Notes under the pieces: model-generated
The model's database searches: none
Told to the model about the DNA's origin: nothing
The model's input: only the letters and a program-made list of their open reading frames with translations
NCBI RefSeq assembly: GCF_036711975.1
Contig: NC_091967.1
Location: forward strand, 24,924,001 to 24,988,000
DNA: 64,000 nt
DNA from: Onthophagus taurus
Lineage: Eukaryota; Arthropoda; Insecta; Coleoptera; Scarabaeidae
Reading direction: 5' to 3'
Position numbers and translations under genes: made by a program
Part shown: positions 28,601 to 61,556 of the stretch, in pieces
How the letters are laid out: each line of letters opens with the position of its first letter
Position numbering within the stretch: the first letter of the stretch is position 1

Positions 28601-31600
28601 GATCGTTCAAGCTGCTCAGATTCAGTTGCGGAAAAGTGGAAAACGAAATGCTTGCGATATATTAAAAGAAATCACCAATACTAGTCCGACACGTGCAACA
28701 AAATATACGAGGGCATTTTCTGAAACAAGAAAAGAACAAACTGGCCCTCTTACACCATTGCAAGCATTGGCAATGTTTGTAGAAGCTGATTTAAGTCGTC
28801 GACAGTACGAAATAATTAGAAATACCAACAAAAAGTTCTTCCCTTGTTACAGCCTTTTACAAAAGATAAAACAAGAATGTTACCCACCGCCAGAGGCATG
28901 CAAAGTAACAAGTACCTGCGCTGAAAGCGACTTACAATCTTTGGTTGATCTAACCGTAAGGCGCCTGTCAATCTCCCTAGAAGAAGTCCTGATGACATTA
29001 AACGAGAAAGAACGAGATAGCCTAAAGATAATATGTAAATGGGGTTGTGACGGACCTCAGCAATCTAAGTACAAACAAAAATTTGAAAATGATGCTGACT
29101 CAGATGCTAATATATTTCAGAGCTGTTTCGTCCCTCTACGATTGGTTTGTGGCCAAGATGAAAAAAAGATTGTGTGGGAAAACCCAACACCCTCTTCACC
29201 ACGATATTGCCGGCCAATCAGGTTTCGTTTCGTAAAAGAGAGTACCGACATAACGGAAGAAGAAATTAATTATGTCAAAAACTCTACTATTCACTAACGG
29301 CAACAGAGATTTAAATGGGGAAAAATTTTTAGTGAAACAATCATTCATCATGACAATGGTAGACGGTAAAGTCTGCAATGCTGCCACAGGTACGAAATCC
29401 ACAAACCGGTGCTACATATGCGGTGCAACTTCTAAGGATTTCAACCGATTAGATGTTAAAAAAGAGATAAATCCTGAACCACTTGGCGTATAAATTGCCT
29501 GTAAAAAAATAAGAGAGGAAAACTGAAGCCGAAAAAAAAATCGAAAATGATAAGAAACTGGAAATTCAAGCTAGATTTCGAAAAGAAACTGGTTCGATGC
29601 TGTAAAATACGATAAATATGCACTAGATACTGCTCGCTTATATGTCTATCTATATCCTTGGCATCCTATGACACCAACAATGCACAAAATCCTTATCCAT
29701 GGTGCAGTTATAATAAAAAATGCATTGTTACCCATTGAGCAGCTCCCCGAAGAGGCCGCGGAAGCGCGTAATAAGCATTTCAGGTCATACCGCCAAGACT
29801 TCGCTCGAAAATTTTCTAGAGACAACTGCAACAGAGACATTTTTAACCGGCTTCTTTTGACTTCGGACCCTCTGTTAAGTAGCATGAGTAGGGTAAAAAG
29901 TAGAAAACTTAATTCTTTCTTGCCAGAAGCAATTGCTCTACTTATGTCCGCGAATCCGAATGAACTTGGTCATTCTGCAGAAAGCGAAGATGAACATTTG
30001 TCTGAAAAATTACAGATTTTTTGATGTTTTCTTTTTGTTTTGAATAAATACGTCTCGATTTAATATTAAAACCTTTGTTTCATTTACTAATATCGTTTAG
30101 AACCAATATCAAACATAAAATCATTTTGGACGCGTAGATCGTTCAAATACCCGTATGTGCAACGGCGAGAAAATGGACCAAGATTTGGAAACAACATAAA
30201 CTTAGAGTTGCCACCTGGAATATCATACCCTGGAACGCAAAGGAAATCATAGAAGACCGAGAACTTGAAACATTCGGATTTAGTCCCACTACTCTCAAGA
30301 CGGCTAAACCCGAATAATTCTAGTCTTGTGTTAGTTCTAGTGATAATGCTAGTGTAAAACTAGAACTAACACTAGACTTAGAACAAAAAAGTTTCGGGTT
30401 TAGCCGTGCGTCTTCAGGCCCGAAACTTTCTAGTTCTAGTGTTAGTTCTAGTTTTAGTGCAATAAAAATATGCAACATAATGAATCTTATGCTAACTAGC
30501 GTTACCTACCGCTGTTGTTTATAAAATGGATAAGATGAGAGATGTTAATCTATTTATAGAGTCTCTGAAGATGGCCAAGGGCCGAAACTAGTTAGACTTA
30601 AATTCTATATAAAATAAAAGATATAAACTTTTAATTTTATACTAACATCTAGAAAACGATACTGGTCAGAAATTGTAGGTTCCTCTATTTTTTCTATTGC
30701 AGAATTTCTTGGTGTATCTAAGTCGGTTCTTAGACGTATGATGCAAATCGAATTTGAAGCGTTATCCTTTAAAACAAATAGTATTTTAGGTCTTTCGGTA
30801 TTCTGCATTCTATCTAGATAGGTTACATTTTTACCTACCAGACAGCATGAAAATCTCTAAAAACGATAAAATGTTGCTTAGTCAAGTGATGATTTTTTTG
30901 CGCTACTTGTATAGTTTTGACATTAGGAAAAAGAGAAGTTAACGATTCAACTCGAGACCATGCGTCTGCGATTATGTTATCAGATCCTTTAATAAATTGA
31001 ATATCAGATGTAAATTGAATAATATAATGTAGATAACGTATCTGACGAGGAGTTTTGTCAGCTTTAGAATAAAATGAAGTAATTAAAGGTTGGTAAAAAT
31101 CGTAAAATTATAGCCATACAGAAAATGTTTGAAAAATGTAATCGCTGAATATATTGCCAGAAGTTCTCTATCGTACGTGGAGTAATTGATCTGTGAAGAT
31201 GAAAGTTTTTTTTGAAAAGATTGCTACAATTGCTCTAGATGAAGCATCTGTTGTTATTGACAACTTGACTGTACGAGAAGGTTGCGCAAGAACAATTGAT
31301 TGACTTAAAAGAGTTTCTGCAGTATTAAATGAATGTTAATCTAACCAAACAGTGATGTGTTTTTTGTTATCATTTTTCAAAGAATTAGACAGATTATACA
31401 AAGAACTAAGAATCGCTGAAAAATTTGGGACGAAAGGATGATAGAAATTAATCATACCTAAAATATTTGCAATTCCTTAAGGGTTTTCGGTCTTGGAAAA
31501 TTATTAATGGCCTGAATCCTATTGGATGAAGGACGAAGTCCATTTGATGAGATGGTATGACTAAGAAAATCAATGGATTGCACGCCAAAAACACATTTTG

Positions 31601-32035: not shown

Positions 32036-35000
32036 AACAAACAGTAAAAAACTAAAACGATATACATAGAAATGAAAATTGGCGATGTTTCGTCTGACGC
32101 AAAATTGCGACAAGACGCTTTTCAAACATAACCTTTACATTACATTAAACACAAAAAAAAGAAGCACCATTGATCAAATGAACTCAAAAAATAAACTACA
32201 AATAACAAAAGAACAACGGTAAATTAAATTTTCCCTAACCTTAAAAAAGAGAAAAAACAAAAACTTAATATTATATGAAATGCAGACCCATCATCGAACG
32301 AAGCAGAAAAAACAGAGAAACAACAGTTCACTGGTACATTGAATAATTCACTGAAACAGCCACAGAGCTTGAAACTGCGACAGGCGTCAGGCACGAAAGC
32401 CAGAGAGAGCACAGAGGAATCGTTTGTACTTGATTTTAAATTGTTTCGACGCGCATTTTTTAAACTCATTTGGTAGCGAATTGTATTTCAAGACTATCTG
32501 ATATGAGAAGCATCGTTTAAAAAACTATAGTGTTAACATGAACTGTGACACACCGTCCGCGCCAGCAGAAGTGTTTTTCATTGTAAGAAAAACCCTCTCG
32601 ACCTCCGCCCGAGAGACCAATTTGAATTCAAAAATATTTACTCCATCTTTCGGATCATTTAAGTAGGAATTTATTAATTGTTGTGAAGTAGTGGCTGGCG
32701 GCAGGGCGGAAATGAAGTAATCATTTATATCATTGACATTTGATAAGGTTTCTGGTAGCGACAGCTTATTTTTCAAAATACCTATCTTTCGTAAACGTTT
32801 CCAGACATCTGAGGACGCATCCCCCGGTCTACACATACGAAAGTTGACATAAGCTCGCTTTTCGTCTTGAATAACACGAGCCGTAAAATTTCTTAATTCT
32901 TTATATTCGTTATGATCCGCAACAGCCCTGGTCCGTTTCCATCTACCCTTTGCTTTATCCCTCAAAGACATCAAAAATTTGGTATTGCTTGTTAACCATG
33001 GGCTAGCATTCGAACGGCGTGTAGTTGTTTTAACAGGTGCGTGAATATCAAAAAGATTTATTAAATTATTGGTAAGAAAAGATACTTTATCATTAACATC
33101 TACCTCATTTTACCTTTTTAAGCTAAAAATTAATTTTTAAATGACATTAGTCAAAATCAAATTGGCAATGTCAATTTCAAATTGGCATTAGTCAAAATCA
33201 AATTGACAATAATCAAAATTAAAATGGCATTAGTCAATATCAAATTGGCAATAAACAATATCATATTGATATTAATCAACAAATTTAGCACTAATCAAAA
33301 GCAAATTGGCATTAAACAAAATCAAAATGACATTAGTCCATATATCATATCATATTGGCACCAAACAATATCAAGATGGCATGAAAAATAAATGTATAAA
33401 TCGGTGTCAAACAATTGTTAACTTATCGGTTATTGTCAAGTTTATGGTAATTTATTGCGAGATTTCAACTATTATATTCACACGAGATGCCTTATTTAAA
33501 GAAAATGCTGCTGCAAATCTGAGGACACAGATTTGTGCTTTGTATAATGCCACTGGTGACTGGCGTAATCTTGCAAACGTACTACAGGTGCCAAAAAGAA
33601 CCGCGTATCGATGGGTTAACAACCAAGAACAACCGGAAAAGCAGCGAGGAGGTAAACGTAGAGCTAAAATAACTGATGAGCACCGTCAATTCATGGAACG
33701 TTCAGTCGAAGAAAATCCTAAAATTATTCTTAAAGGACAGTGAAAAAATGCGTGAAGATTTGCACTCAATGTCTCCAACGAATGCGTTCGACAGCATCTC
33801 AATGGATTGATGTTTACTTTGAAGACTGCTCGTAGAGAACCAGAGAACGCGAATAGTATTCAAACGAAAACAAGCAGGAGTATTTATGTAGAAAATTTAT
33901 TGGATCTTCAAGCACAAAATATACCTATCATATACATGGACGAGACAAACTTTAATTTGTTCATATCGCGGACTCAGGGTCGTTCAAAAAAAGGGACTCG
34001 CTGCACAACAGTGTCTGCAGGTTGCAGAGGGTCGAATATTCACCTAATAGGATGCATTGGAAACATGGGGCTAATTCATTCCGAACTACGTCGGGGCTCT
34101 TTCAAGAAGCCGGAAGCAAATGAATTTGTGAGGCAATGCCTAAGAAGAGCGCAAGGCCTTTACCAAACTGGAGTTGCATTAGTTATTGATAATGCTCCAT
34201 GCCACTCGACTATTGAAGAGGTTTTTGCAGAAAACGAATTTGAACACCACACACTTTTACGACTAAGTCCGTACAGCCCTATGTTTAATCCTATTGAACA
34301 AGCGTGGTCTGCATTAAAAGCAGGAGTAAAAGCAGATATGGCTGTACAGCTAAATAACATCTTGGCTGGTGCTGACCGGGATCATCTGACTCAAATAGAA
34401 TATCGAATGCAGAAATTAGATTACTGTTGCCAATTGCGCAATGTTTATTGCCCACATCCAACGATTTATCCCTTCTGCATTGAATATGCAAGATATAAAT
34501 TTTTAAGAGTGTTATTTAAAACATGACGTTACCTATTTTCTTAAGTAATATAATTGTTTATCTACTATGTTTGTAAGTCAATAAAATGTTTTTGCCCATT
34601 TCATTTAGCATTAAATAGCTGATATATAATTTTATTTCCATGTCAATTTAAAATTCATAAGTGCCAATATGATATGGACTAATGTCATTTCGATTTTGTT
34701 TAATGCCGATTTGCTTTTGATTAGTGCTAAATTTGTTGATTAATGCCAATATAATATTGTTTATTGCCAATTTGATATTGACTAATGCCATTTTAATTTT
34801 GATTATTGTCAATTTGATTTTGACTAATGCCAATTTGAAATTGACATTGCCAATATGATTTTGACTAATGTCATTTTGATTCTGATTAGTGCCAATTTGT
34901 GCTTGAAAAGGTATAGAATACGGTAAATATTGTTAAAGGGAAATGCTACGAAATCACTTAAGAATTTATTTTTATCAAAATTACCGAAATCACGATACCG

Positions 35001-38000
35001 TTTGAACGTAGGCTGTTCAGTAGATTTTATAAAAGTTAGCTTGCAATAGATTAATTCGTGATCAGAGATAGCGTCAGCGTTTAGTGTATCTACATGAGTA
35101 ATTAAATCTAGGTTCTATGTTAAAATGATATCAATGATCTTTGAGGTCTTTGGCGAAACTCGAGTTGGCTTATCCATTAATTGTTTAATATCAATCCCTT
35201 CTATCATGTCATTGAATCTCAAAGCATCATTATCATTTAAGTTTGACATATCAATATTTATGCCCCCCAAACAGAGGACCTCATCATGCGTTGGAAGTAA
35301 AGATAATATAGCTGTGATTCTAGTTCCTCCGTGAATGTGCGACAATTAACTTTAGTGTGTTGGCGGTAAACTACCCCTACTAGAAATTTAACCTTACCTA
35401 GCTCGACACTCATCGAAAGCTGCTCAAAGGTATAGGCTAACAGATTGGTCCATTTGGTCAACTCTGGTCGATGTGTATTTTGTCACTGTAAGTATTGCTG
35501 GAGATGTGAGTTGTGCACAAAAACACTGCTTTGAACGCAAGTGCTTTGCTCAATTTCATACTTAAACTGCCCATTATCCCTAGGTGAGGACACCCCTTTC
35601 CTCAAAAAATGTTGGTCAAAGTTTTTTTTAACTTCTTATTTGACCAAGAATGAATATTAATAAACGACAACAAAAAATTTTACAGGCAGTTTTGACTTGG
35701 ACGTTAACGGATCCTTAGTGTCGGTAATAGACCACGCTTCTATGCCGACCAAAACAACAACCTCTCAAAAATGTGCAACGAATGATTAGAACGAACTTCC
35801 ATATAATGTTTTTATCCAAAACAAAAGTTCCGAATAGAAAAGCAATGGTCATGGTGATGACCGTACTTATTATATTTTTCGGCAATGCTACACATATACA
35901 GTATGTATATTTGGTTGCCTATCCTTTAAAAATTGTTTTAATTTAATACCAATATTTAAATTTTATATCGTACACGTTTTAAGTGAAGATTCATTCGCGT
36001 TTTTCGTACTACTTACCTTGATGGTTGTTTGGTACGTGGCCCTTCTTTTCCTAATAAATGCAAAATCCTCACAGCTAAAGATGTATGTTCACAATCCTCA
36101 ATAAATTCACATAAATGCGCTAAACCAGTTTCTTTAGCATCGGGATTATCCTCAATGATGGTAATAATAGTATCAGCAATAGAAGCTTTATAATCAAACC
36201 CACCCTCTTCCCTTAACATAGCTGATAAGAAATTCATCAAAACGCTATGTTTACGCGGAAACTTCAAAGCTAAAGCTCGAATCGCTTGTACAACAACAAC
36301 TTTAAATTCGTCGCTTATTTCGGAGACAAACATTGATATTTGTTTCATTAATCTTTCAACAGAAGATTCTCCACCAGTTTTTAATAACGTTGTTATAGCC
36401 AAAGTTGCGATGGATCTATTAGAATCAGTAATTAAGTTCTCCAAGTCTAAATTGCAAGCTGTTACAGCAGCTGGATGGGAAATTGCGACTTGATTCAATG
36501 TGCGAACGGCGGCAAAACGCAATGTAGGTTTTGGAGAGCTACAAAATAATTGGAGAACACTTATAGCTGGAGCCAATTCGCGACTTGTAGTGCGTTTTAA
36601 GTTTACAATTGCATGTGCTGCCTCGTAAATAACCATTTCAGATTTATGTCTTAAGCAGGAATCAATAAATTCAAAGAGCTGATTTGAACCGCTTCCAGAA
36701 TCATCTTCTTCAAGTAATTTTGCAGCAATACGAATCAACATGCAAACTGCGTATGGCGATTTTAATGACATTCTTGTTAATTTTGCTACTAATTTTGTAA
36801 CAGCAAGTCTATCAGATTTTCTGATGTGATATAAAACGCCCAAAGCATGGTATTGAACCATAATATTATCGCTATTAACAGCTTCTTGTGCCTCATTAAC
36901 CCATCTTTTAACAACATCTCCTGCCATTTTAGTCATGTGCAAAGAACTAACCAAAGCGGCGCTGCTAACGGCACAATTACGATCAACAATCGCTTGTTTC
37001 ATGTATCTTTCGATAGCTTGTAACATGGTAGAATCAGTAATGCTGCATAAAGCTCTTATAGCAGCCGCCCTGTATAAATCTTCTTTACCAGTCATATCTT
37101 TGGTAAGACTAGAAGTTACAATTATTACATCATCAGCTAAAGAGCTTAATTCTTTAATTCCTAAATAAACCATCCTTCTTAAGATAACATCTTTTGATTG
37201 AAACAATTTCGTCATTGCAAAGAAAGCTTCTGTTGCTTCGGTGTTACCAAAAATTTCGCCCTATTTAAGTTGAAATAAAATTATAAACGAACTCGATGTT
37301 TAACGCGAAAATTCAAGAATCATTATGTTGCTTAAAAATCGATTCTTTTTAAATGAGCCAAAAAACACGTTAAAAATAAAAAGAAAGTGCAGAAAAGTGT
37401 AGAACATACCAAAAAATCATATTAATGTTTCGATGTGACGTCACAAGCAATGTTAACCACGCATTTTCCCATTAAACCGGTCAGTACCTAACCTACGAAT
37501 TATTGATAGACTGTGTGTCAATAGACTCTGTGTTAATACTAGAACTAACACTAGACCGAAAACTAGAAACATTCGGACTTAGTCGCACGTCTCTCAAGAC
37601 GACTAAACCCGAATGATTCTAGTTCTAGATCTTGTATTAGTTCTAGTGATAGTGTAAAACTAGAACTAACACTAGACCTAGAAATATTTGAGTTTAGCCA
37701 TACGTCTGAAGACAGTTTCTAGTTCTAGGTCTAGTGTTAGTTCTAGTTTTAATTCAACAAAAATATGCAACTTATTGATATCTAGTACTAAGTAGCTGTA
37801 TCTAGCACTGTCACTAGAAGTAACATTAGACCTAGAACTAGAAACATTCGGATTTAGCCGCACGTCTCTCAAGACGGCTAAACCCAAATGATTCTAGTTC
37901 TAGTCTTGTGTTAGTTCTAGTGATAGTGCAAAACTAGAACTAACGCTAGACTGAGAACTCGTAACATTCGGATTTAGCCGCACGTCTCTCAGTATGGCTA

Positions 38001-41000
38001 AACCCGAATGATTCTAGTTCTAGGTCTTGTGTTAATTCTAGTGATAGTGTAAAACTAGAACTAACACTAGAGCTAGAACTAGAAATATTCGGATTTAGCC
38101 GTGCGTCTGAAGACACTTTCTAGAAAGTTTCTAGGTCTAGTATTAATTCTAGTTTTAATTCAATAAAAATATGCAACTTACTGATATCTAGTGCTAAGTA
38201 GCGATATCTAGCATTGCCACTAGAAGTAACATTAGACCTAAAACTAGAAACATTCGGATTTAGCCGCACGTCTCTTAAGACGGCTAAACCCGAACGATTC
38301 TAGCTCTATGTCTAGTGTTAGCTCTAGTTTTAATTCGACAAAAATATGCAACTTACTGATATCTAGTGCTAAGTAGCGATATCTAGCACTGTCACTAGAA
38401 GTAACATTAGAACTAGAACTAGAAACATTCGGATTCAGCCACACGTCTCTCAAGACGGCTAAACCGGAATGATTCTAGTTCTAGGTTTAGTGTTAGTTCC
38501 AGTTTTAATACAACAAAAATATGCAACTTACTGATATCTAGTGCTAAGTAGCGCTATCTAGCACTGTCACTAGAACTAACGCTAGACCGAGAACTAGAAA
38601 CATTCGGATTTAGCCGCACGTCTTTCAAGACGGCTAAACCCGAATGATCCTAGTTTCACTTTTCAACCCTTCCAATGAACTCTTTTACGACCTTACAAAG
38701 ATTCCTCCTATAAACTCCCGTCTACAATCCTTATCCCTTAAAGCAATTATGAACTTCCCCAAAAACGCCCTAAAAAATTTCATCATCACTCCCCTCTCCA
38801 TTACCCACTGTCCCATAACACGGCTCACACTGCTTAAAAAAATAAGGCCCAACTGAGAAGACTTAAGTACAACCAAACCGAATTCCAAGTCACGGGCAGG
38901 AAGACTAAGGTCTATAGCCCTTTTGGACTCTTTTTTATGTTTGTTTTATATATGTATTTCTTTTCGTATTTGTTATTATTTTTATATAAGTCCAAATAAA
39001 AATTATTTTCTTCTTCTTCCTAAGATAAGTGTTCCAACAAAATCGCTAACGTGTTGTTGAACGTCCAAAATCGCTAACGGACTAAATTCTGTATCTCAAA
39101 GGACAGTAAGTGCAGAAACAATTCGAAATGTTCTCCACAAAAGTGGATACCATGGATATATCACAATATCACAAAAGAACCGTATAAAACGGCTGGAATT
39201 TGCAAAAAAAATACGTCTAAATACGATGAATTTTGGAAATCAATAATTTTAGTGATGAAACAAAAATTAACATATTCCATTATGATTCGCGCTTTAAGAT
39301 TTGGCGAAAACGTGAAAAAGCATTCAAACGAGAAAATTTGTACCCAACAGTAAAATATAGAGTGCTAGTGTTATGTTGTGGGAGTGTATGTCAGCTGCTG
39401 GTGCAGGCAAAATGACATTTACAAATGGTATCATGGATAAACGATATTACCTTGATATTTTAAAAAATAATTTATTAGAAAGTGCTAGAAACTTTGGGAT
39501 AGCGAGATCATTTACTTTTATTTTACTAAACTAGGTGAGATTACAACGTACATTTACGGATGAAACACCCTTGTTTTTCTTAGGCTTTCGATGCATAACG
39601 ACTGACTACCAGTCGTTAGATAGACTTTGTGTCAATAGACTTTATGTTAATACTAGAACTAACACTAGACCGAAACTAGAAACTTTCGGATTTAGTCGCA
39701 CGTCTCTCAAGACGGCTAAATCGGAATGATTCTAGTTCTAGGTCTTGTGTTAGTTTTAGTGTTAGTGCAAAACGACAACTAACACTAGACCGGGAACTAG
39801 AATCATTCGGGTTTAGTCGTCTTCAGAGACGTGCGGCTAAACCCGAATGATTCTAGTTCTAGGTTTTCTGTTAGTTCTAGTGATAGTGTAAAACTAGAAC
39901 TAACACTACACCTAGAACTAGAAAATATCGGGTTTAGCCGTGCGTCTGAAGACATTTTCAGACGCAGTTCAGTAATTTTTAGTGATGAAACAAAAATTAA
40001 TTTATTCCATTGTGATTTGAGCCTTAAGATTTGGCGAAAACGTAACGAAGCATTTAAACCAAAAAATTTGTGCCCAACAGTAAAATATGGAGGTGGTAGT
40101 GCTATGTTGTGAGTAAAATGACATTTATAAATGGTATCATGGATAAACGATATTACCTAGATATCTTACAAAATAATTTATTAGAAAGTGCTGTAAATTT
40201 TGGGATTGCAAGATCATTTACTTTTCAACAAGATAATGATCCCAAGCACATGGCAGAAGTTGTGCGCCTGTGGTTGCTGTATAATGTTCCTTATCAATTA
40301 CATACCCCTCCACAATCCCCAGATCTCAATCCCATAGAACATCTATGGAATGAGATGAAGCGCAAAACACGGCAACATCCCATAACAAATTTAAACGAAT
40401 TAAAAGAGAGAATAAAGGAGGAAAGAGGCAAAATAAATGCTGCTGTTACCCAAAAGTTGGTGGCTTCAATGTCGAGAAGATTAGAAGCAGTTATCAAGAG
40501 TAATGGCTATCCCACTTATTATTAAGTGTTCTTTTTTGAGGTTGTATGGAGACTTGAGTGTAGAATTTACGCTTTTTCTTGCATTTTTTTTTATAAATCC
40601 CAAACCAATTGTTCAATTTGGATATAAATAGTATAGCTCAAGTTCCTTACATTTCTTTATCAACTCTAACTAGTTTTTCATTACCTTGGAGGTGTAACCT
40701 TTAATTTTTTTGTAAAAGATGATGTCGCAAGAAGATGAAAGCTATTACAGTACTCTTGGGTCATTAATTTTTCTAGGTATCAATGTGACAATTTTTGTCT
40801 ATGGATGTTTAAACATGTTCTTGACATCGAATACAAGATCCACAATATTTTGGGAGGTGCACATGAAACATTTTTTTCAGGTGAATACATTTTGTTTTGA
40901 CAATTTCTAATTGTCAATTCAAATTTCTATTTAAGTATACGCGAATTACAAATAATAGCATAAGAAACACGTTTCATAAGAATTAAAGCACTCATTCATT

Positions 41001-41659: not shown

Positions 41660-44600
41660 ATGTCAGTGAGCGAAGAAAAGTCGAGCATGTCAAGATTACT
41701 TAAATTGGCACATAAATTTAATTGTTTTTACTTGTCAGGCAAGTGGAAGTCGTATAGATAATCTACGTAAAGTCGTTGACGGTCGTTTCATTTAGAAATC
41801 AGTGAAATTATCGTCATGGATGTCGAATTATGGGCTTATATTGATCATATGCACTAACCCGCCCATAAGGCGACACTCTATTGGTATAATTTTATTTCTT
41901 TTAATTTGAACTAATTTTTTTTTAGGATTAACCACTGGAGACTGCAAACCTTTTATTGTTGAGGGCTTCCAGGTGGGACTAATTAGACATGATGTCATGC
42001 AGGAATTATTATCCTATCCTGAGGTAAGTCCAAAATAAGAACATTTATGGTTAGGAAATGTGGAATTAGTTAAGTTGTTTTGATGTGAAAGATGTAAATA
42101 TCAATAACTTTCATTTTCTCGAGGGAATTATAAACATCGATAAGTAAATTACATAAGAATATTATCAAATTAAGATATTTTTATTCTTTATACCACCAAT
42201 TTTTGTGTAATGTGTAAGTTGAAAAATGATTTTTATGTAGATTTAAAACATAGTTTATATTGTTTTATTCCAAGTAGATTTATCAACTTTTTCTATGAAA
42301 AATATCAATTGCTGCTTTGATTAAGCATGAGATATTGATGTTTTTAAATAAGTATAGATTATGTGTTATTGTGTAGACTATTTTGTAGATGAATTAGCGT
42401 GATAAGAACTATCATTAGTATTTGATTTATCGTTAGATTCATTGGACTTTAAGTTAGACAATGTCTGTTTAAACTTCAAATTTCCCCATTTATAAATAGA
42501 TATCAGAGTTTATTTTAATGCTAAATCAGATGTTTTGCCAAATTCATTTATTTTTATTTAATAATTATACATTAATCAATAATTAACATATACTATAATT
42601 TATGTTTTGTAGTCAATCTTTGTATTTAGGTTAAAACATAATAAAACTATGTGTATTTTTTATTAGATGGATGGTTATTTATTTTTGGCTCTACTGGTTT
42701 CAAATACATAAAAAAAAAAATACATAAGTTTGTGAGGGAAAAACCAACAACACAAAGACCTTTGAAGAAAAGAAATATCTTTTTAAAAATATACAATCCT
42801 GACGTGGCATGCTCCTGAAGATGAATGTAAAAAAAATTCGAAGCGGGTAGAGCCAAAAATAAATAACCATCCATCTAACAAAAAATACACTATTTTTTTA
42901 ATTCGTATGAGTAAAATGAAAAGTCACGTTTACACACTGTAATTTTTCAAAGTTATTTTTTGGCGGGAGTTTTAACGCGTGTGAAGTTGGCCATAGATTT
43001 CAGCCATAGATTTTAAACTGAAAAAAGAAAATTTTCCTAACCATTTCTTATTTTCCGGGAAAATCGATTTTCTTCAAACTTTCGCAAAATTCGGCTCGTT
43101 CGGGGTTTTTAATCGATCTAATTTCAACGGCATCGTATTCCTGGTGGCCTCTTGCTTCAGATTCGAAATAAAAATTTTCCTAACCATTTCTTAATTTTCG
43201 GGAAAATCGATTTTCTTCAAACTTTCGCAAAATTCGGCCCGTTCGGGGTTTTTAATCGATCTAATTTCAACGGCATCGTATTCCTGGTGGCCTCTTGCTT
43301 CAGATTCGAAAAGAAAATTTTCCTAACCATTTCTTAATTTTCGGGAAAATCGATTTTCGTCAAACTCGCAAAATTCGGCTCGTTCGGGGTTTTTAATCGA
43401 TCTAATTTCAACGGCATCGTATTCCTGGTCGCCTCTTGCTTTAAATTGGAACAGAAAATGTTCCTAATCATTTCCTATTTTCCGGAAAAACCGATTTTCT
43501 TCAAACATTTGCAAATTTCGGCTTGTGCGGGGTTTCTAATTGATCTAATTTCAACGGCATCGTATTGCTGGTGCCTTTTTACTTCAGATTCAAAAAGAAA
43601 ATTTTCCTAACCATTTCTTATATTCCTAGAAAATCGTTTTTCTTCAAACAATTGCAAATTTTGGCCTGTTCGGGGTTTCTAATCGATCTAATTTCAACGG
43701 TATCGTATTCCTGGTGGCCTTTTGCTTCAGATGCAAAAAGAAAATGTTCCTAACCATTTCCTATTTTCCGGAAAAACCGATTTTCTTCAAACATTCGCAA
43801 ATTTCGGCTTGTTCGGGGTTTCTAATCGATTTCATTTCAACGGCATCGTATTCCTGGTCGCCTCTTGCTTCAGATTCGAAAATAAAATTTTTCTAACCAT
43901 TTCCTATATTCCGGGACTTTTATTCGTTGTCTAAGAAGCCTACCTTTGTCGGGAACTAAGTCTCGCAGCTTCTTAACTTGCGCCCCGCAGAATCTCCATA
44001 ACCGAAGTACACTTAGGCATGTTTACCTATTTTGACGAATCCCAACTATGGCACGAAAACCTCGGGACGTTTACCTACCTGTCGCGCTGATATATTACTG
44101 CACCGATTCGAAAGACAGATTAATACCATTTGATTTCAAAGGCAAGAATGTTTACTTTAGGTATGTAATATTATGCAACAATGAAACATACGATTGAAAT
44201 TTATATATACATAATATTTATTTACATTCACACAATTCACATATATTTATGTATTTATCATTATTTACGCAAACGTTACAACAATATTTATGGCATAATT
44301 GACAATAAATATCATTTGCTGCTTCGCCACAGTATAATCAAAGCTTCGAAATATTGTCAGAATTTTGTGATATATAATTTTTTATTTGTAGCCTATATTT
44401 ATCTGGATTAATTTCTTCCCATTCTAACTCGTTTATTAAAACGTCGCAATAATGACATAAACACCACAATTCGAAGTTTGAAGAAAAACTATTTTCCCGA
44501 AATATAGGAAATGGTTAGGAAAATTTTCTTTTTGAATCTGAAGTAAAAGGGCACCAGGAAAACGATGCCGTTGAAATTAGATCGATTAGAAACCCCGAAC

Positions 44601-47600
44601 AGGCCAAAATTTGCAATTGTTTGAAGAAAAACGATTTTCCCGGAATATAAGAAATGGTTAGGAAAATTTTCTTTTTGAATCTGAAGTAAAAGGGCACCAA
44701 GAATACGATGCCGTTGAAATTAGATCGATTAGACACCCCGAATAGGCCGAAATTTGCGATTGTTTGAAGAAAAACGATTTTCCCGGAATATAAGAAATGG
44801 TTAGGAAAATTTTCTTTTCGAATCTGAAGCAAGAGGCCACCAAGAATACGATGCCGTTGAAATTAGATCGATTAAAAACCCCGAACAAGCCGAATTTTGC
44901 GAAAGTTTGAAGAAAATCGATTTTCCCGGAAAATAATAAATGGTTAGGAAAATTTTCTTTTCGAATCTGAAACAAGAGGCGACCATGAATACGATGCCGC
45001 TGAAATTACACTGTTGGACATAATTCACGAGCACACCTTATATAATCTGAACGCGTGAAGATAAATCCATGATATTTGCGGAGCACAAAGGTTTACTGTA
45101 GACGAGTTTATTCATCGAGTTTCGAGTTGTTCCGTCGCGGCATTGTTGACTGAGCCGCTCTTCCAAGTGGAACATTCCGTCGCTATGGAGACCGAAGTGG
45201 ATGGAAAATACCGGTCGTTTTTAGTGTGGTGTGAGGAACCACATTGTTATCCTACTCTGTGCGCAATGGATGGGCGATTGCGTTACTTAAGCGAGTTTGA
45301 GCGAGGAATGTTTGAGGGTATGCACATTGCGGTGTATCGTTCTGTGAAATTGCGCGTTGTCTCGAGCGGTCGTTATCGGCAGTGCAACGGGCATGGCGAG
45401 AATGGTCTGAGGTAGGACATAGGCAAGGTTTAAATATTAAAGGTTGTCTAAGTTCCTATGCTGCAATACTTTGATTTTAGTTTGTGGGCGAGGGGCAAGA
45501 GCAGGAGTGTTTCGTGACGTAAGCGATCACGGATTGCGCACGCAACCTCATGGCCATGTGGTGCTCCATGCATTTATTTAATTTGAATTGCTTAGCGGTA
45601 TTATTTTCCACATGTGACGTAATGCGCAGTATGGTTGCGTACGAACCTAGACAACCTTTTATATATAAACCTTGGGACATAGGTACCTACAGCCGCGGGC
45701 GGGACGGCCCTGCGCGACCCCAGCACACGAGGATCGCACTCTTGTGCTCAGCGCTTTAGCGTCGTGTGCGGCCTCCTCAAGGCAACTTGGAGCTGTTTGG
45801 CCACCGGTAGGAGAAGGCGCACTCACTAAGCGAACTGTATGGCGGCGTTTGGTAGATAGTGGACTGCGCGCGCGTCGTGCGATACAGCGGATTCCAGTAA
45901 CACCCGAGCACCGTAGCATACGTCACGAGTGGGTCGACGCTAGGCATTAGTAGGTTGCCGAGTAGAGGGACATTTTGTTTTCCGACGAATCAAGATTCGA
46001 ATTGAGCACCTATGATGCGCGAATTTTAGTTCGTCGGAGACGTGGTGATCGTCTACTCGAGCAGTGCGTGCAAGAATGCCCTATTCACCGACAACCGAGC
46101 ATTATGGTATGGGGTGCTATTGCACATGGTGGACGTACACGTCTGCTACGTGTATAGCAGACCATGACGGGTCAACGATACGTAGATGAGGTGCTACGGT
46201 CCGTTGTGCTTCCCTACGTTCGGCGGCGCCCAGGTCTGCTATACATGCACGACAACGTCCGAACGCACATCGGGCGTATTGTACAGACCTTTGTGGAAGA
46301 GCACCGTATACGAATGCTTCGTAGGCCAGCTCGTTTTTCGGATCTGAATCCAATCGAACATGTTTGGGACAAGACTGGTCGGAGACTTCTACGTTATCCG
46401 GCTTCCTCGGCTAACGTTGAGGAGCTATGGAGGCGAGTTGAGGTGGCATGGTTGGCCATCCCTCTTGCTACAATACAGCGACTTATAGAATCCATGCCGC
46501 GTCGTGTAGCGATGGTACGCGAAGCTCACGGGGGATACTCTCGCTATTGATGTTTCATCTCCCAGCAGAGTTGTGCCGTTCTCCATGTGAGAATAAGTTA
46601 CACTACTTTAGTACTACTTCCATACCAAATTTTATTGCGCTAGACACACGCGTTCAGATTATACAGGGTGTGCTCGTGAATTATTTCCAACAGTGTAGAT
46701 CGATTGAATACCCCGATCACGCATTTTTTTCAGTTTAAAATCTATGGCCAACTTCACACGCGTGGAGTTTTAAGAAAGGATTTTAAGTAAACTGTAGTTA
46801 CGAATTTAATTACTTATTTGTTTAAACATAATAAAAACCAGTAGACGGAGAGCTGGCTACATAGGGGTACGGGTGACTTGGTGCAGTGTGAATTTTAGCA
46901 TTTACAGGTTCGGTTATTACAGACGTAGCGTGAGACGGGCCGCCAGAAGAATAACGCGAGGGTAGAGGCTTAAATATACATTTTTTTTTCGTTAACTAAG
47001 TCATAAGGTGCAGTGCTGAAAATTTGCAGAATAATCGGAGGTTACACAAATAAGTAGAGAAAAAATTGCCAAAAGACTACTATCCGTGCAAGAAGTCAAG
47101 GCCCCTCACTTTAGAGATCGATATCTTCGTAACCGCTCGATGGAAAAAATTGCGGTAAAGTTTATTGAAATCAATCAAAAATTTCAAATTTGAGCTGGTG
47201 GTAAACCGATGTGTTCTTAATGTGGGGCATATTTTATTTTTTCGATATTCCATATAGTTTCGCGGAAAATCGCAGTTTAGTAAGACGCCGTTATGTCGAA
47301 AACGGCTGGGTGGATTTCCTCGAGGATTTTACCAAATAATGTCGATTGTCGGATTCCGTTATCTAAATGACTTTGGTGTCCAAAAAGGGGACGAAATGGT
47401 CTTCATTTTCAACCTCTATTGTGAATTGTATGTGTTTATTACAATTATTGAAGGTTGTCAACACGTGGTCAACTGCAGTTTTGGGAATTGACAGTATGAT
47501 ATCATCTACATATTTTTTAATGAAAGGAACTTGAAAATTTAGTTTTGGAATGATTTTGTCTAACGTGTAGTCCATAACAATTTGTGATAGAATGGGTGAA

Positions 47601-53600: not shown

Positions 53601-55963
53601 TATATTTTTATTTTTGCTACACACAAATAATAGTGCAAAAAAAGTGACCTTCAGCTAATCCTGTTTCGCCGTTATTTATTTGATTCTTGGTTTTAATGTC
53701 AAGATAAAGTTTATCGCGTTACAAAAATGTTTGCGGTTCTTTATTTAGAAAAACAATTGATATGTAAAAACTAGTGATGGAACGGATAGTGATTTTGCGA
53801 CAAGCCGGATATTCGGCATCCCCTTCGGCCGGATATCCTCTATTGCCACATTATTGCGATATTTGAATAAAAATGAAATTAATAAGAAAGCTGATAAGAT
53901 ATGTCAACTTATTTGGATTTCTCAAAAACTGAAAGCGATTTTTCAAAATGGCTTGTTGCATTAAAAAGAGAATACTTTAATTAATAATTGGTACTATTTA
54001 CACAAGGATCCTTGCAGAAATTAATTTTATAGCGAATTTTGAAAATTGTCGATGAAAATTGCAACATCGTAAATTTGATCAAAACTTCAAATATTGTTTT
54101 CTCCGGTGTTGGTTTTGAAAAAGTTATTTTTCAAAACCTGTTGGTTTATTGGAAAGAGGACACTCTTATTAACACTTTGGGAAATTTTCATACTCATATC
54201 GCAAGAAATAGATCATATACGAATTTTTAAAGCTTAATCGGCGAAAATTGCAAAATTCGAAAAAATTGTCGATCATTTCAAAAATTTATTTCTCAAGAAC
54301 TAAAAGTGATTTTTCAAAATGGCTTGTTGCATTAAAAAGAGGATACTTTTATTAATAATTGGTAATATTTCCACAAGGATCCTTCCAGAAATTAATTTTA
54401 TAGTGAATTTTGAAAATTATCGATGAAAATTGCAACACCGTAAATTTTATCAAAACTTCAAATATTGTTTTCTCAAAAACTAAAAGCTAGTTTTCAAAGC
54501 GGGTTCGTTCATTGGAAAGAAGACACTTTTATTAACACTTTGGGAAATTTTCATACTCATATTCCAAGAACTGGATTTTATACGAATTTTTAAAACTTAA
54601 TCGATGCAAATTGCAAAATTCGAAAAAATTGTCGATCATTTCAAAAATTTTTTTTTCAAGAACTGAAAGTGATTTTTTAAAACGGCTTCTTGCATTAAAA
54701 AGAGGATACTTTAATTAATAATCGAAAGTGATAACAGCGACAGTTCTGTTAGTAATGAATGTGATGATGAATTACAAGCGAAGAGAAGAAGATTTTATAT
54801 ATCGTATTGGGATTGTTACAATGAGGTTGCTAATGACAAACCTGATATAAATAAAGTTGTATTCAATGAAAAAAGTCCTATGGGTTTGAACTTGATTATT
54901 ATCTGTAGTGATGGGAATACCGCTCATAATCGTGTCGCGCTCCAGGAACGGTCGCTACACAAAAATACCGTTCCAAAATACCGTGACCTTGAGCAAAAAC
55001 ATAGCTGGTTTCGTAGCAAGTTAGAAAAAATTATATATTCCCATATATTATCATAATTTAACCCTAGGATCTTAACTAAAAAAATAACTAAAGTAACTAT
55101 AATCTCGCCGGGCCTGAGAGGCCCGGTTTATGCATCCTAGGGTTAAAAAAATTACACGCTATCCGAAAATTGAAAAAAAAATATATATTAAGGGAACCTT
55201 AAACAAATATCAATATAACGGCGTTTAACCTGACTGTCTTATATGTATAACGTTATAATATAAAGTTTGGAATCGGGTATTTTAAAAATCGCGCCGAAAT
55301 ATCGCTCCTCAAATACTGAACCATCACTAATTATCTGCAGAGTCCAAGACCTAAAAGAGATACTAATTCCTGTGAATGGTGAAGTACTAAGTAATAGGTT
55401 TTTAATATCCGGCCACAGCCGGATATTTGGTGACTATACGGTCGGTTTTAACAAATGGCCGGATAGGCTGGATACCGGATATCCGTTCCACCACTAGTAA
55501 AAACTATATTATTATGAAATGTTGTGATTCTTTATTTATTACTGTATTATTGTTTTTTTAATTTCTATATTAGGTTTTACTTCGAATCAGAACAAGGATT
55601 ATTTCCAAACACGGAATTTGTGTTTGATGTAGAACTGCCGGTGGATTTTGTCCCAAAAAATGCTGACGGCGAAGTGCAAAAATTCGAACTCTTGCCTGCG
55701 AAAAAATGTTTAGAAAGGTTATTTAGTTCAGATTTTAAAACAACTAGTATACCGGTCGCGTTAGATTTTTTGTTACGTCACGGAGTAATATCGCCCGAAA
55801 ACGGTAGGTTTACTCATACAATTTAAAACTAATTAATTAAAAATTGCGATTTTTAGAAACACATTATACAAGGATAGTAGAATTACTTCACGTTCCATTA
55901 CAAAAAATATACAATAATCATCACATTTGTAAAGAAAACGGTGGCAACGAAGACCATGTATAA
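41660..55963 (+). CDS. DUF4743/Nudix hydrolase (thiamin-damage type)
   Basis: Seven exons: 41660-41738, 41926-42023, 53009-53149, 53209-53386, 53443-53578, 55574-55803 and 55857-55963. They sum to 969 nt, i.e. 322 residues. The N-terminal DUF4743 half reads MSRLLKLAHKFNCFYLSG, CKPFIVEGFQVGLIRHDV and FRVTSGFVELNP. The Nudix half begins ATCLFGIRNYGVDINGYV and has the Nudix-box-like GGGLSVGYGILETAFKEAEE. Proteins of this architecture in yeast (YJR142W) and Arabidopsis (NUDT20/24) are known to hydrolyse damaged thiamin-diphosphate analogues; the same role here is inferred. Intron 1 appears to start with GC (TCAG|GCAAGT). Intron 2 is 11 kb and intron 5 about 2 kb, both filled by transposons. Confidence 0.88.
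42024..42650. other. Nudix intron 2 start, no gene seen
   Basis: Very AT-rich sequence without recognisable coding or repeats. Confidence 0.4.
42651..42890. repeat. Hairpin MITE, 44-bp arms
   Basis: The left arm starts GTGTATTTTTTATTAGATGG and the right arm ends CCATCTAACAAAAAATACAC. The arms meet inwards at TTTTGGCTCTAC and GTAGAGCCAAAA. The spacer includes GCTCCTGAAGATGAATG, a motif also seen at ends of Penelope-like elements. Confidence 0.75.
43031..43915. repeat. 143-bp tandem repeats, left Foldback arm
   Basis: ATTTTCCTAACC begins units at 43031, 43174 and 43317, period 143 bp, with later units slightly diverged. Each unit contains CGGGGTTT, ATCGATCTAATTTCAACGG and TTGCTTCAGATTCGAAAAG. 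The short ORFs here are produced by the repeats and are not genes. Confidence 0.92.
44048..44197 (+). CDS. Foldback loop ORF 1, unknown
   Basis: A 49-codon ORF from ATG at 44048: MARKPRDVYLPVALIYYCTD, then a LIPFDFKGKNVYFR block directly before GGTATGT, which looks like a splice donor. If spliced there, the frame would be open-ended. It is unrelated to the flanking repeats and tail-to-tail with the Cys-rich ORF. Function unknown. Confidence 0.3.
   Translation: MARKPRDVYLPVALIYYCTDSKDRLIPFDFKGKNVYFRYVILCNNETYD
44218..44514 (-). pseudogene. Foldback loop ORF 2, Cys-rich
   Basis: One minus-strand frame is open from 44514 to 44218 apart from a single TGA at 44340-44338. Its upstream part starts in the repeat arm, then reads WCLCHYCDVLINELEWEEIN. 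After the stop it is dense in cysteine with zinc-finger-like pairs (YCGEAANDIYCQLC, CCNVC, ICELCEC) and ends at TAA. Four C-x2-C pairs in about 37 residues suggest a zinc-binding module. I do not recognise the family. A link to the MULE/NOF protein is only a hypothesis. Confidence 0.4.
44497..45006. repeat. 143-bp tandem repeats, right Foldback arm
   Basis: Inverted copies of the left-arm unit. Equivalent points recur at 44515, 44658 and 44801 (143 bp apart). The array is cut at 45007 by the Tc1-like insertion and a remnant resumes at 46698. Confidence 0.92.
45009..46695 (+). mobile_element. Tc1-like DD34E transposon
   Basis: A 1687-bp element flanked by TA (45007-08, 46696-97) with terminal repeats CACTGTTGGACATAATTCAC and GTGAATTATTTCCAACAGTG. 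Transposase pieces: 45672-45950 (a TKRTVWRRLVDSGL helix-turn-helix, then RRAIQRIPVTPEH), 45975-46157 (FSDESRFELSTYDARILV, IMVWGAIAHGG) and 46164-46550 (YMHDNVRTHIGRIVQTFVEE, DLNPIEHVWD, GYSRY end). Spacing is DD34E. Stop codons at 45948 and 46156 break an otherwise continuous frame. Base composition is clearly GC-richer than the surroundings. Confidence 0.88.
46773..47362. other. Nudix intron 2, unassigned
   Basis: No gene or repeat recognised between the Foldback element and the Penelope-like fragment. Confidence 0.35.
47363..47700 (-). mobile_element. Penelope-like RT fragment
   Basis: Minus-strand 47638-47363 encodes the RT palm of a Penelope-like element (KQIFGTPMGSPILSQIVMDY, KKYVDDIILSIP, FVPFLDTKVI). 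The adjoining plus-strand CCTGAGGAAGAT...AATCGAAATATTGG segment is the kind of end sequence seen beside such elements. 5'-truncated. Confidence 0.8.
47701..49560. other. Nudix intron 2, unassigned 1.9 kb
   Basis: An AT-rich stretch. Short ORFs (for example 48750-48959, MGISMGQYNLKSFLIGYYLK) have no recognised domain. A small hairpin ATGTGAGAGAAAATCTCACAT lies near 48687. No repeat boundaries found. Confidence 0.35.
49561..49790 (+). mobile_element. Transposase helix-turn-helix fragment (DUF4817 type)
   Basis: ORF 49576-49782 reads AIVRRYREKFPARRIPNRKT then FEAIETRLWETGTL. This is the N-terminal DNA-binding domain common to the mariner-like transposases elsewhere in the window. No catalytic domain follows. 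Confidence 0.65.
50454..51748 (+). mobile_element. Mariner-like element, nearly complete
   Basis: A 1295-bp element flanked by TA (50452-53, 51749-50). The terminal repeats share GGTGTCCGCCGGGAAGGT and CTACTTTGTTT. The transposase starts at 50565 (MEKFSVNQRVLIVKTFYQNQ) with helix-turn-helix REIFGRNNVPTRRTI and runs to 51644. In the middle the frame meets TAATGA at 51030-51035 just where the first catalytic Asp block (MSD.) would fall in another frame, and THFHLNGYVNKQNSRFW follows. Later motifs: WYQQDGATSHTA and WPPRSPDLTAPDFFLWGYLK. A small indel therefore inactivates an otherwise intact gene. Confidence 0.88.
51825..52440 (+). mobile_element. Second mariner-like transposase remnant
   Basis: 51825-52184 encodes RRLSLRFDVSSTSVRRTLRE, KRRNFCQWLIQ and VTDECCFTRNGIINF (first catalytic Asp). 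Broken frames continue to 52440 with FSFNVW-like, LILPPRLSG and MWFQ-like (MWFNRNAAF) segments. Ends and C terminus are lost. Confidence 0.7.
52441..52510. repeat. Hairpin/CTAG repeat fragment
   Basis: AAGACGCACGGCTCAACTTG followed by GGTCTAGTGTTAGTTCTAGT is a short member of the 37.5-kb family. Confidence 0.6.
54906..55329. mobile_element. hAT-type MITE nested in hAT
   Basis: 424 bp with ends TAGTGATGG and CCATCACTA, flanked by an exact 8-bp duplication ATTATCTG (54898-54905, 55330-55337). Removing it and one duplication restores the host element's frame. It is itself host to a piggyBac-like MITE. Confidence 0.85.
55062..55142. mobile_element. piggyBac-like MITE, 81 bp
   Basis: Ends CCCTAGGAT and ATCCTAGGG sit between exact TTAA duplications (55058-55061, 55143-55146), the piggyBac target. 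CCCTAG is also the classical piggyBac terminus. The centre holds a short palindrome (CGGGCCTGAGAGGCCCG). Confidence 0.75.
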
Positions 55964-58869: not shown

Positions 58870-61556
58870 CAGTGTCCCAAAAAGTGTGACGCCATGATGA
58901 TATATTTTTTTAAATATAAATAAAATTCGTTTTAGTAGTATTTCCTGAAGATGTTGTAAATATATAGCGAAACCGGTTGAGAGAAAATTTAAATAAAAAT
59001 CCATTTAAGTGCAAAAACGAATTTTATTTATTAGACATAAAATGGAAAGAAAATCATCAAACAATATTAATAAGATTGGTACGACCCATTTCTACGAATA
59101 CAAAAGATACAACCTTAGATTATTACCACAACTACAACATATTCATTTTCTTAAAACATGTATAGAAGAAAAATTGAACCCAAATTTCTTAAAACATAAA
59201 TATCCGAAAATTTTAACAGAAAACACAATCGAAAAAATAAAATTAAAAGAAATTAGAAGAGAAATTAAAGAACACTACAGAAAAATAAATGAATTCACTA
59301 CTAAATTACATCACCTAGAAATAGAAGAAATACTAATAAAAATTAAAGAAACACTAGATTCTACATTAGCACGAGAATGGGAAAGAAAAGAGAGAAAATT
59401 AAACCAACTTCGTAAAGAAAAAGAAAAGAAGAAAAAGAGAAAAGAAAACAACACCAATCTACATAAATTTCATGACCGAGTCACTAATCCCGCGAACACT
59501 AAATTTAACACCGAAGAAATGAAACTTCTTAACAAAGGTACTAAATATTCCATAGTAGACACACCAAACCTAAGAAGAGTAGCACTGGAAATGGAAGCCA
59601 TAACAAGAGGAATGAGAGAAGAGGAAGAAATAAGGAAGAATCTACAACAACTTCTAATCCGAGAAGTCACAAAGAAGAGGAACAAGAACAATGAAGAGAA
59701 GATTAAGGAGAAACGAAGAAAAGAGGTAAAACTAATAGAGTCAATAAAGGATAAAATCAAAGAAAACCACCTAATATTTACTAAAGCAGACAAGAATGCA
59801 AGTTTGGTAATTTTAAACAAAACTGAGTATGTTAATAAAACAGAAAAATTCCTTAGAGGAAATAATTATAAGAAGATTTTGAAGAATCCTAATAATAATT
59901 TTCACTCAAATGTTAAAAAAAACCATCAATGAGGTTAAAGATATTCTTAAAAAATATAATGTTAACACAAGGAATATAATTCCAATGAACCCAAAAACAC
60001 CTAGGTTATACTCCCTCATTAAGTTACATAAAATAGACCATCCAATAAGACCCATAATAGCCTCTACTGACGCCAGTACATACATAATCTCAAAATTTCT
60101 AGTACAGTTTTTTAAAAATAACATAGACTTTAAACCCAAATATACAATTAATGATAGAAGGCAGATGATACAAAAACTTACAGACATCAACCTACCAATT
60201 AACAACACCATATTATCCTTTGACGTAGTAAACTTATATACCAACAGTCCTACCAAACAAACGTTAAAAATTGTCGAAAACATTCTAAATTCACAACTAG
60301 AAAACAAGAATGATAGCAAAAACATACTTAACCTATTCCAAATCTGCTTACAACAGAACTTCTGTAACTTTCAAAATGAAACATATACATATCAAGAGGG
60401 ACTCCCCATGGGCTCTCCTTTAAGCGGATTATTAGCTGACATCTTTATGAATGAGTTGGAAACCAATCTCATAATGAGTGAAAAAACCCTTATCTCAAAA
60501 ATATATTAATATGGCAACGCTATGTTGATGACATTTTGGTCATTATTAACACCGAAAAGAAAGAAACTGTTGACGGTTTACACCAATACATTAACACACT
60601 ACACACAGACATCCAATTTACAATAGAACTCGAAAACAACAATAAATTAAATTTTCTTGATATCACAATAGACAAAACCAAACATGACATATAATTCAAA
60701 TTTGAATACAGAAAAATGTAACAAAGAAATTAAGATAATAAAAGATATTGCCATAAATAATTCTTTTCCAGAAGAAGTAATAGATAGAGTGATCCATAAA
60801 TATCAAAATAGACAGAACTTAAATAACACTACACAACTACAAAATTAACAGACACAAAAAATCAAAAACTACAGATCCATCACACACCAAGGAAACATTA
60901 ATAACAGAATAAAACAAACTATGAAACAATATGACATTATAATTACAGATAAACCAGGTAAAACCATAGGCCATCTGCTCATAAACAATAAAGACAAAAT
61001 AAACAAATTAGATGATAATGGAGTGTACGAACTTCAATGTGATACCTGTCATGCAACCTACATCGGAGAGACAGGCAGAGCTCTTAAACTACGAATTATT
61101 AGGGAATGAATGAATGAATAGGTTTAAATGTCAGGAATTGAGATGGGGTTGTTATCACAAAATATTTTTGTTTTTTAATTCTGCATCGATTTACATAAAA
61201 ATATGTAGGGGGTCCAATTTAAAATAAGAAAGATAAAATGCTTTAAAGTTTGAAAGTTTTGACACTAGATTTTGGCCAGCCTGTATAATTTTGAATCAAT
61301 GGAACTTAGTTAACGAATCAATGGAACTTTATTAATGAGGCGCTGTTTGTAATTATGATTAATTTTGAAAACCAGCGACGCAAATACGATTTTTTTTCGC
61401 TTTTATTTTTTTGTGCTGCTGTCATTCAGCCAATTTCAATAAAATTTTGGAACTATGTAGGCACCCATAAAAGACACCCAAAAATGTGAGAAAAGATATA
61501 TCGTGCCATATAAAAAAATATATTATCATGGCGGTACACTTTTTTGGGACATCCTG
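58870..61556. mobile_element. Inner TIR element carrying Penelope insert
   Basis: Ends CAGTGTCCCAAAAAGTGT and ACACTTTTTTGGGACATCCTG are complementary, extend about 45 bp and are flanked by TA (58868-69, 61557-58), as in mariner-type MITEs. The interior right part (61110-61500) is AT-rich and non-coding. The left interior is occupied by the Penelope-like element. Confidence 0.75.
58930..61110 (+). mobile_element. Penelope-like element (RT + GIY-YIG)
   Basis: A plus-strand retroelement. The leader contains TTCCTGAAGATG and GCGAAACCGG end-type motifs. ORF 59009-59932 is a highly charged N-terminal region (Lys/Glu-rich coiled coil; SIVDTPNLRRVALEMEAITR). 59910-60509 is the RT (RLYSLIKLHKIDHPIRPIIA, SFDVVNLYTNSP, YTYQEGLPMGSPLSGLLADI). 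About 60512-60545 gives RYVDDILVIINT. 60921-61109 ends in the GIY-YIG endonuclease start (CDTCHATYIGETGRALKLRI), cut off before completion. Frameshifts at 59930, 60505 and 60690-60850 inactivate it. This is the most complete Penelope copy of the four in the window. Confidence 0.88.

What the first reader, a model, noticed from the sequence alone, without database searches (positions are those of the whole stretch)
42975..46763. Foldback/MULE-like element with 143-bp tandem arms and exact 9-bp TSD
Exact complementary ends, an exact 9-bp target duplication (GGAGTTTTA) and arms made of inverted 143-bp tandem arrays match the architecture of Drosophila FB/NOF elements. The repeat unit and loop ORFs are not ones I recognise, so this may be a new Foldback family. 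Unequal arms (about 6 versus 3.5 units) suggest copy-number change since insertion.
Basis: partly seen in the sequence, partly recalled or inferred. Interest (0 to 1): 0.8.

Follow-up and report, generated by a model that had tools for sequence, protein, structure and literature searches.

The report
Decayed foldback DNA transposon copy
This stretch is one copy of a jumping DNA element whose two ends are mirrored stacks of a 143-base repeat; it has lost most of its own mobility gene and was hit by a second, unrelated jumping element, but other copies and an intact relative show what kind of element it is.

Summary
Window 42975-46763 is a 3,789-bp transposon copy with matching ends, inverted 143-bp arrays (6.3 and 3.7 units) and an exact 9-bp target duplication. 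Its terminus occurs 107 times in this 290.8-Mb genome. Of 30 copies with both ends in hand, 22 have an exact 9-bp duplication. Uninterrupted relatives of the insertion site carry one GGAGTTTTA-like 9-mer (6 of 6 fetched). The "loop ORFs" right of the arrays belong to a Tc1/mariner insertion at a TA (45009-46695). The true core (43917-44470) is 94% identical to part of a longer copy on contig C11, which bears broken pieces of a transposase-like protein with an Ulp1-type protease domain; the window keeps the gene's tail. A related family has a 13,034-bp element with 141-bp arrays, 9-bp duplication, similar ends and an intact 1,380-aa frame with DDE-type motifs, Ulp1 domain and PHD-like motif. 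Testable features point to Rehavkus rather than Drosophila FB/NOF, but no Rehavkus or NOF sequence could be compared. Verdict: new member of a known kind.

The parts
42966..42974 (.). left target-site duplication GGAGTTTTA
   Evidence: single in 6 of 6 uninterrupted relatives fetched, 4 exact and 2 with one mismatch
42975..43022 (+). left terminal cap, long form
43023..43916 (+). left arm: 6.3 units of 143 bp
43917..44475 (.). core: remnant of the element's interior; 43917-44470 is 94% identical to C11:10257089-10257641
44296..44471 (-). decayed tail of the transposase gene: end of the Ulp1-type domain and start of a Cys-rich motif; 85% identical over 55 aa to the C11 copy, one in-frame stop, and the NCGVYVI motif in another frame
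44476..45008 (-). right arm: 3.7 units of 143 bp, inverted
45009..46695 (+). nested Tc1/mariner-type element inserted at TA in the right arm (TA at 45007-45008 and 46696-46697)
   Evidence: frame 46158-46550 matches DDE_3 PF13358, E 1.7e-8; frame 45065-45415 has no Pfam match; inverted ends
46696..46763 (-). rest of the outermost right unit and right terminal cap, short form
46764..46772 (.). right target-site duplication GGAGTTTTA

Best explanation
The feature is a non-autonomous, internally deleted copy of a foldback-type cut-and-paste DNA transposon. Shown: a family of many copies with shared ends, 9-bp duplications, uninterrupted target sites, variable inverted arrays, and a core derived from a longer copy that carries broken pieces of a gene with transposase-like and Ulp1-type parts. 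Inferred: a DDE transposase of the Rehavkus (MULE-related) kind, supplied in trans by longer copies, recognises the roughly 26-bp terminal cap, cuts the element out and inserts it with a 9-bp stagger. Inferred from unit comparison: each arm grows and shrinks on its own by local tandem duplication or unequal exchange, sometimes of blocks of several units, not by copying one arm onto the other. A Tc1/mariner element later landed in the right arm.
For: Terminus: 107 hits, control 0. 9-bp TSD: 22 of 30 exact, 4 of 30 with one mismatch, 4 of 30 without; mispaired control 1 of 870. Empty sites: 38 of 40 listed matches to the joined flanks run across the junction, the other 2 being the window's own flanks; 6 of 6 fetched have one GGAGTTTTA-like 9-mer. 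Arms: 25 of 30 copies have units in both orientations, 0.5 to 27.3 units each way; L047 has 30.9 units in one orientation only. Core: 94% identity to the C11 copy, gene tail retained. C11 gene: Peptidase_C48, 29.4 bits against a cut-off of 20.7; D, D and E motifs aligned with five related proteins, one of them partial. Related intact element: 13,034 bp, TSD TAACATTAC, 1,380-aa open frame; eight long copies counting itself, largest pieces 98-100% identical; its end matches this family's at 16 of 26 positions, which shuffles reach in 0.02% of trials. Units: mean identity 0.913 in the same arm, 0.870 between arms of one element, 0.870 between elements; in L047 a lag of three units scores highest.
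Against: No intact transposase of this very family was found: the C11 copy alone matches its DDE piece closely (next best by score 44%, short pieces up to 55%), its gene lies in broken pieces, the CxxH motif falls in a break and was not seen, and its right end was not found in 8.4 kb at up to 7 mismatches. The DDE reading rests on motifs: Pfam found no transposase domain in these proteins, and a profile comparison with two MULE proteins gave E 0.14, no better than an unrelated mariner-type control at 0.11. The 143-bp unit is no more like the cap than shuffled sequence, so a binding role of the arrays is unsupported. Four of 30 copies lack a TSD. The window site lacks 5 bp, just after the duplication, that 6 of 6 uninterrupted relatives have.
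Confidence: 0.86

Rival explanations
1. A true FB/NOF or Phantom-type (canonical MULE) foldback element whose transposase carries a MULE domain.
For: 9-bp TSD and arrays in inverted arms match the descriptions of FB-like Tm1 (PMC3169594 passages); order D, D, CxxH, E as in the two MULE proteins looked at (in MULE L089 two of the four motifs matched the pattern only loosely or not at all).
Against: PF10551 matches none of the family's or relatives' proteins tested and no place of the family in the genome; Tm1/Phantom proteins are described with a FLYWCH finger and a MULE domain, not with Ulp1 and PHD-like parts.
Confidence: 0.12
2. Mobilised in trans by the young related 141-bp family rather than by its own transposase, since no intact own gene is seen.
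For: Similar ends (16 of 26); young long copies of the other family present; own gene broken.
Against: Ends differ at 10 of 26 bases; the 141-bp and 143-bp units are no more alike than shuffles; many caps are still perfect (51 of the 100 listed hits), which past activity of its own explains as well.
Confidence: 0.25
3. A satellite array duplicated and inverted by chance or by assembly error.
For: Tandem 143-bp units; very long arrays in some copies.
Against: Caps, TSDs, uninterrupted sites and many independent insertions.
Confidence: 0.01

Closest known systems
Rehavkus DNA transposons (Repbase; e.g. Rehavkus-1_TC of Tribolium)
   Same: [quoted passage not shown]
   Different: An Ulp1-type domain lies in the protein here; PMC6446971 does not hold the word Ulp1 (count 0). 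Repbase entries themselves were not available, so they may carry it.
Foldback (FB/NOF) of Drosophila; Tm1 of Meloidogyne
   Same: [quoted passage not shown] FB/NOF itself recalled).
   Different: Unit of 143 bp, in Tm1 mostly 14 bp; no MULE Pfam domain found here, whereas Tm1-A has FLYWCH and MULE domains.
Tetris of Drosophila virilis
   Same: Foldback with ~220-bp units in the inverted ends, TSDs of 8-10 bp (PMC4079207 passages).
   Different: No coding copy of Tetris was found by its authors; here a gene-bearing copy and an intact related family lie in the same genome. Tetris units share 37 bp with the end domain; here no likeness beyond shuffles.
Galileo (P superfamily)
   Same: Foldback-like long, internally repetitive ends (abstracts listed).
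   Different: P-type transposase with a THAP domain (abstract listed); the protein here shows other motifs.
KIU/Kaonashi Vandal MULEs of plants
   Same: Ulp1 domain carried by MULE-type elements (PMC13317346 passages; grapevine MULE and CACTA families too, PMC2528002 passages).
   Different: Plant elements without terminal inverted repeats, Ulp1 in an accessory gene; here it is in the transposase frame.

Membership tests
Foldback-type architecture | long inverted arms built of tandem units, variable in number | tested here: met
Rehavkus | 9-bp target-site duplication | tested here: met
   22 of 30 exact; 9 bp in the intact relative
Rehavkus | minisatellite in or near the terminal inverted repeats | tested here: met
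Rehavkus | PHD finger in the transposase | tested here: inconclusive
   C4HC3 pattern seen by eye in three relatives, L083, L086, L087; Pfam PHD aligned end to end in L083 but at 11 bits, under the cut-off of 24; only a partial motif in this family
Rehavkus | transposase sequence homologous to Rehavkus proteins | not testable with these tools
   no Rehavkus protein at hand
MULE (PF10551) | MULE transposase domain by Pfam | tested here: not met
   profile comparison no better than control
FB/NOF | NOF-type transposase | not testable with these tools
   no NOF sequence at hand
Tc1/mariner (nested insert only) | TA target, inverted ends, DDE_3 domain | tested here: met

The most novel reading that the evidence does not exclude
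A lineage of foldback transposons whose transposase is one protein with a zinc-binding N-terminus, a MULE-like DDE core, an Ulp1-type deSUMOylating protease and a PHD-type chromatin reader. Protease and reader may let the element strip SUMO from, or read, chromatin at silenced copies, and the two arms act as separately evolving nurseries of satellite DNA.
Probability: 0.3. Interest if true: 0.65.

Novelty: new member of a known kind. Interest (0 to 1): 0.45.

Why it matters
Foldback elements are often found without the gene that moves them (Tetris is an example). Here one genome holds deletion derivatives, a decayed coding copy and, in a related family, near-identical long copies with an intact frame, so what the arrays do and how they change can be tested. 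The unit comparison shows arms changing independently of each other, a possible route from transposon ends to satellite DNA.

Tried and rejected
(1) MULE/FB membership by Pfam: no match to this family. (2) Profile comparison with two MULE proteins from the same genome: E 0.14, while an unrelated mariner-type control protein gave 0.11. (3) Cap-like motif in the 143-bp unit: no more than shuffles; likeness of 141-bp and 143-bp units: no more than shuffles. (4) Partner flanks for the four copies without TSD, to show exchange between elements: no exact partner among 78 distinct flanks; one-mismatch hits only (L063 right with L018; L067 right with L071/L013, the same end), too few to claim. (5) A LINE-type and a Transib-like gene (named from recall) inside the 8.2-kb copy L044 were considered as the transposase and rejected: the first has a reverse transcriptase domain, the second lies in a stretch with its own ends and 5-bp duplication (4236-7718). 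(6) NCBIfam: nothing at E up to 1 for L083 and L081. (7) Host by telomere repeat: TTAGG x5 at one internal place (three overlapping hits), with 11 hits in its control; TCAGG x5 none; undecided. (8) The automatic cap classes misfile L044 and L069 through a loose match; the figures given here (15 of 30 one long and one short cap, 9 of 30 two long, 6 of 30 not classed) are read from the printed ends. (9) The line 'extend to 10' printed was wrongly set up and is not used.

Dropped rows: 40 copies were examined (the 40 loci with L042 and L043 counted as one, plus the window). Ten (L068, L070-L078) showed only one end in the stretch fetched and are not in the TSD count.

Full report
The window lies at C2:24924001-24988000 of an unnamed 290.8-Mb, 33-contig genome. 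Its cellular genes include coatomer gamma (25642-26886 and 36016-37260, minus) and a Nup160-type gene (15655-16242), so the host is a eukaryote; that it is an arthropod is my inference, not a test.

Observation. The element at 42975-46763 has two inverted 143-bp arrays, 6.3 and 3.7 units, matching ends and an exact GGAGTTTTA duplication. The terminal 26-mer is found 107 times with up to three mismatches (50 forward, 57 reverse; the pattern read backwards 0); 51 of the 100 listed hits are perfect. The first 426 bases gave 196 matches, a lower bound.

Copies. I fetched 40 loci. With the window, and with L042 and L043 as one, 30 of 40 copies show both ends. Of these 30, 22 have an exact 9-bp duplication, 4 have one mismatch, and 4 have none that convinces (L047, L053, L063 with 7-9 mismatches; L067 with 3). 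Mispaired flanks gave 1 exact match in 870. The 26 duplicated sites counted are 75% A+T without a clear motif. 28 of 30 copies contain 143-bp units and 25 of 30 in both orientations; the two without, L045 and L046, are a related group with the end ACGGTTGTGAAGTTAGCC.

Empty sites. The window's joined flanks gave 40 listed matches (40 scored of 221 candidates); two are its own flanks and 38 run across the junction at 85-91% identity, so the element landed in a member of a dispersed repeat. Six were fetched: each has one copy of the 9-mer, 4 exact and 2 with one mismatch. All six also have five bases after it that the window lacks; whether that is an old difference of this repeat copy or a scar I cannot say.

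The loop. The open frames right of the arrays lie in a Tc1/mariner-type insertion, 45009-46695, with TA on both sides; 46158-46550 matches DDE_3, 45065-45415 matches nothing in Pfam. The element's own core, 43917-44470, matches C11:10257089-10257641 at 94%, and 11 further shorter matches are listed.

The coding copy. The C11 copy (L076 with L079) has a long-form left cap and 143-bp units, then open pieces on the minus strand, among them 254, 186 and 470 aa. The 470-aa piece has a Peptidase_C48 match over the curated cut-off. The 186-aa piece has 52 matches in the genome, the next best by score at 44% identity. The window's core keeps the gene's tail at 44296-44471, 85% identical over 55 aa, with a stop and a frame change. 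So the window copy is an internal-deletion derivative of such an element. A 77-aa piece of the same gene has 13 matches, 11 of them at 55-100% and two to distant relatives at 34-39%. No right end of the C11 copy was found.

Relatives. L083 with its neighbours L084 and L085 is an element of a related family, C1:23370206-23383239: 13,034 bp, duplication TAACATTAC, end ATGTCGTTGAAGTTAGC, 141-bp units (8.8 in one arm, at least 30.8 in the other, 98-99% matches), and one open 1,380-aa frame. Eight long copies counting itself are seen, the largest pieces 98-100% identical; four of the eight show no stop inside the pieces listed, and two on C7 have the same figures and may be one duplicated copy. That degree of likeness suggests recent movement. 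Aligned with L081, L082, L086, L087 and the C11 pieces, the proteins share an N-terminal CxHxxC motif, a D in FDAT or its variants, a D in VTD or TVD, CxxH and a VExxF glutamate; L082 is partial and C11 has a break at CxxH. By eye, L083 and L086 then have an Ulp1-type region with His, Asp or Asn, Gln and Cys kept, followed by a C4HC3 motif; L087 has the C4HC3 motif directly after the DDE part, and its frame was fetched only in part. Pfam puts C48 in L083 barely over its cut-off (20.8 against 20.7) and PHD below it. No transposase family was matched, and the profile comparison with MULE proteins was no better than an unrelated control.

Arms. For 199 full units from 27 copies, mean identity is 0.913 within an arm, 0.870 between the two arms of one element and 0.870 between elements; a unit's nearest relative lies in its own element in 36% of cases against 5% for shuffled labels. 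In L047, with 30.9 units in one direction, a lag of three units scores best (0.90 against 0.85 for one). Arms therefore appear to change separately, by local and multi-unit duplication.

Ends. The cap comes with or without a 13-bp extra CAGCCATAGATTT. Fifteen of 30 copies have one of each, 9 of 30 two long ones, 6 of 30 could not be classed (read). Three of the four copies without a TSD have two long caps (L047, L053, L063). That would fit exchange between elements through their arms, but no partners were found.

Comparison with what is known. PMC6446971 (passages) lists Rehavkus with 9-bp TSD, PHD finger and minisatellite, in arthropods and annelids; [quoted passage not shown] The features testable here agree, the PHD only weakly. 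Rehavkus proteins could not be compared. The library holds 8 papers with the word Rehavkus. Searches for Ulp1 with MULE or insect-transposon terms showed no arthropod foldback with an Ulp1 domain among the 20 of 119 papers listed and the 6 of 6 (titles and abstract starts only); one of the latter is on Ginger transposons and holds Ulp1 21 times (not opened). Repbase and most subscription papers are not in that library. Plant MULEs with Ulp1 are known (passages).

Verdict. A real, mobile foldback family; the window copy is a decayed derivative; the kind is known; the family and its setting, with coding relatives in the same genome, are useful.

Noticed in passing
C1:23370206-23383239 (L084+L083+L085): 13,034-bp foldback element with 141-bp arrays, an open 1,380-aa frame and seven other long copies of high identity; looks recently active.
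   Followed up: partly
window 33139-34876: A second foldback-like element: 205-nt arms of a 21-bp tandem repeat, 97% complementary, on either side of a frame with a DDE_3 match (33756-34523), so probably a Tc1/mariner-type element with foldback ends.
   Followed up: partly
L044:4236-7718: Nested stretch with CACACTGGGGCAAA ends and 5-bp CGCCG duplication holding a protein that looks Transib-like (recalled; no Pfam match); a similar frame by eye at window 28503-30024.
   Followed up: partly
window 42663-42878: Short inverted repeat (TTAGATGGATGGTTATTTATTTTTGGCTCTAC and its complement), probably a MITE, just left of the insertion (by eye).
   Followed up: no
window 42885-42974 and 46773-46842: The target is a dispersed repeat with at least 38 other copies in the genome; the window copy lacks 5 bp present in 6 of 6 fetched relatives beside the insertion point.
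   Followed up: partly
window 13909-14998, 20772-21473, 37538-38653, 39657-39946, 53917-54722: Other tandem arrays (periods 173, 225 and shorter, 120-406, 121, 363 bp) that may mark further repeat-bearing elements.
   Followed up: no
window 59009-60509: Reverse-transcriptase frame (RVT_1 29.1 bits, just under the cut-off of 29.6) after a long basic frame; Penelope-like by recall.
   Followed up: no
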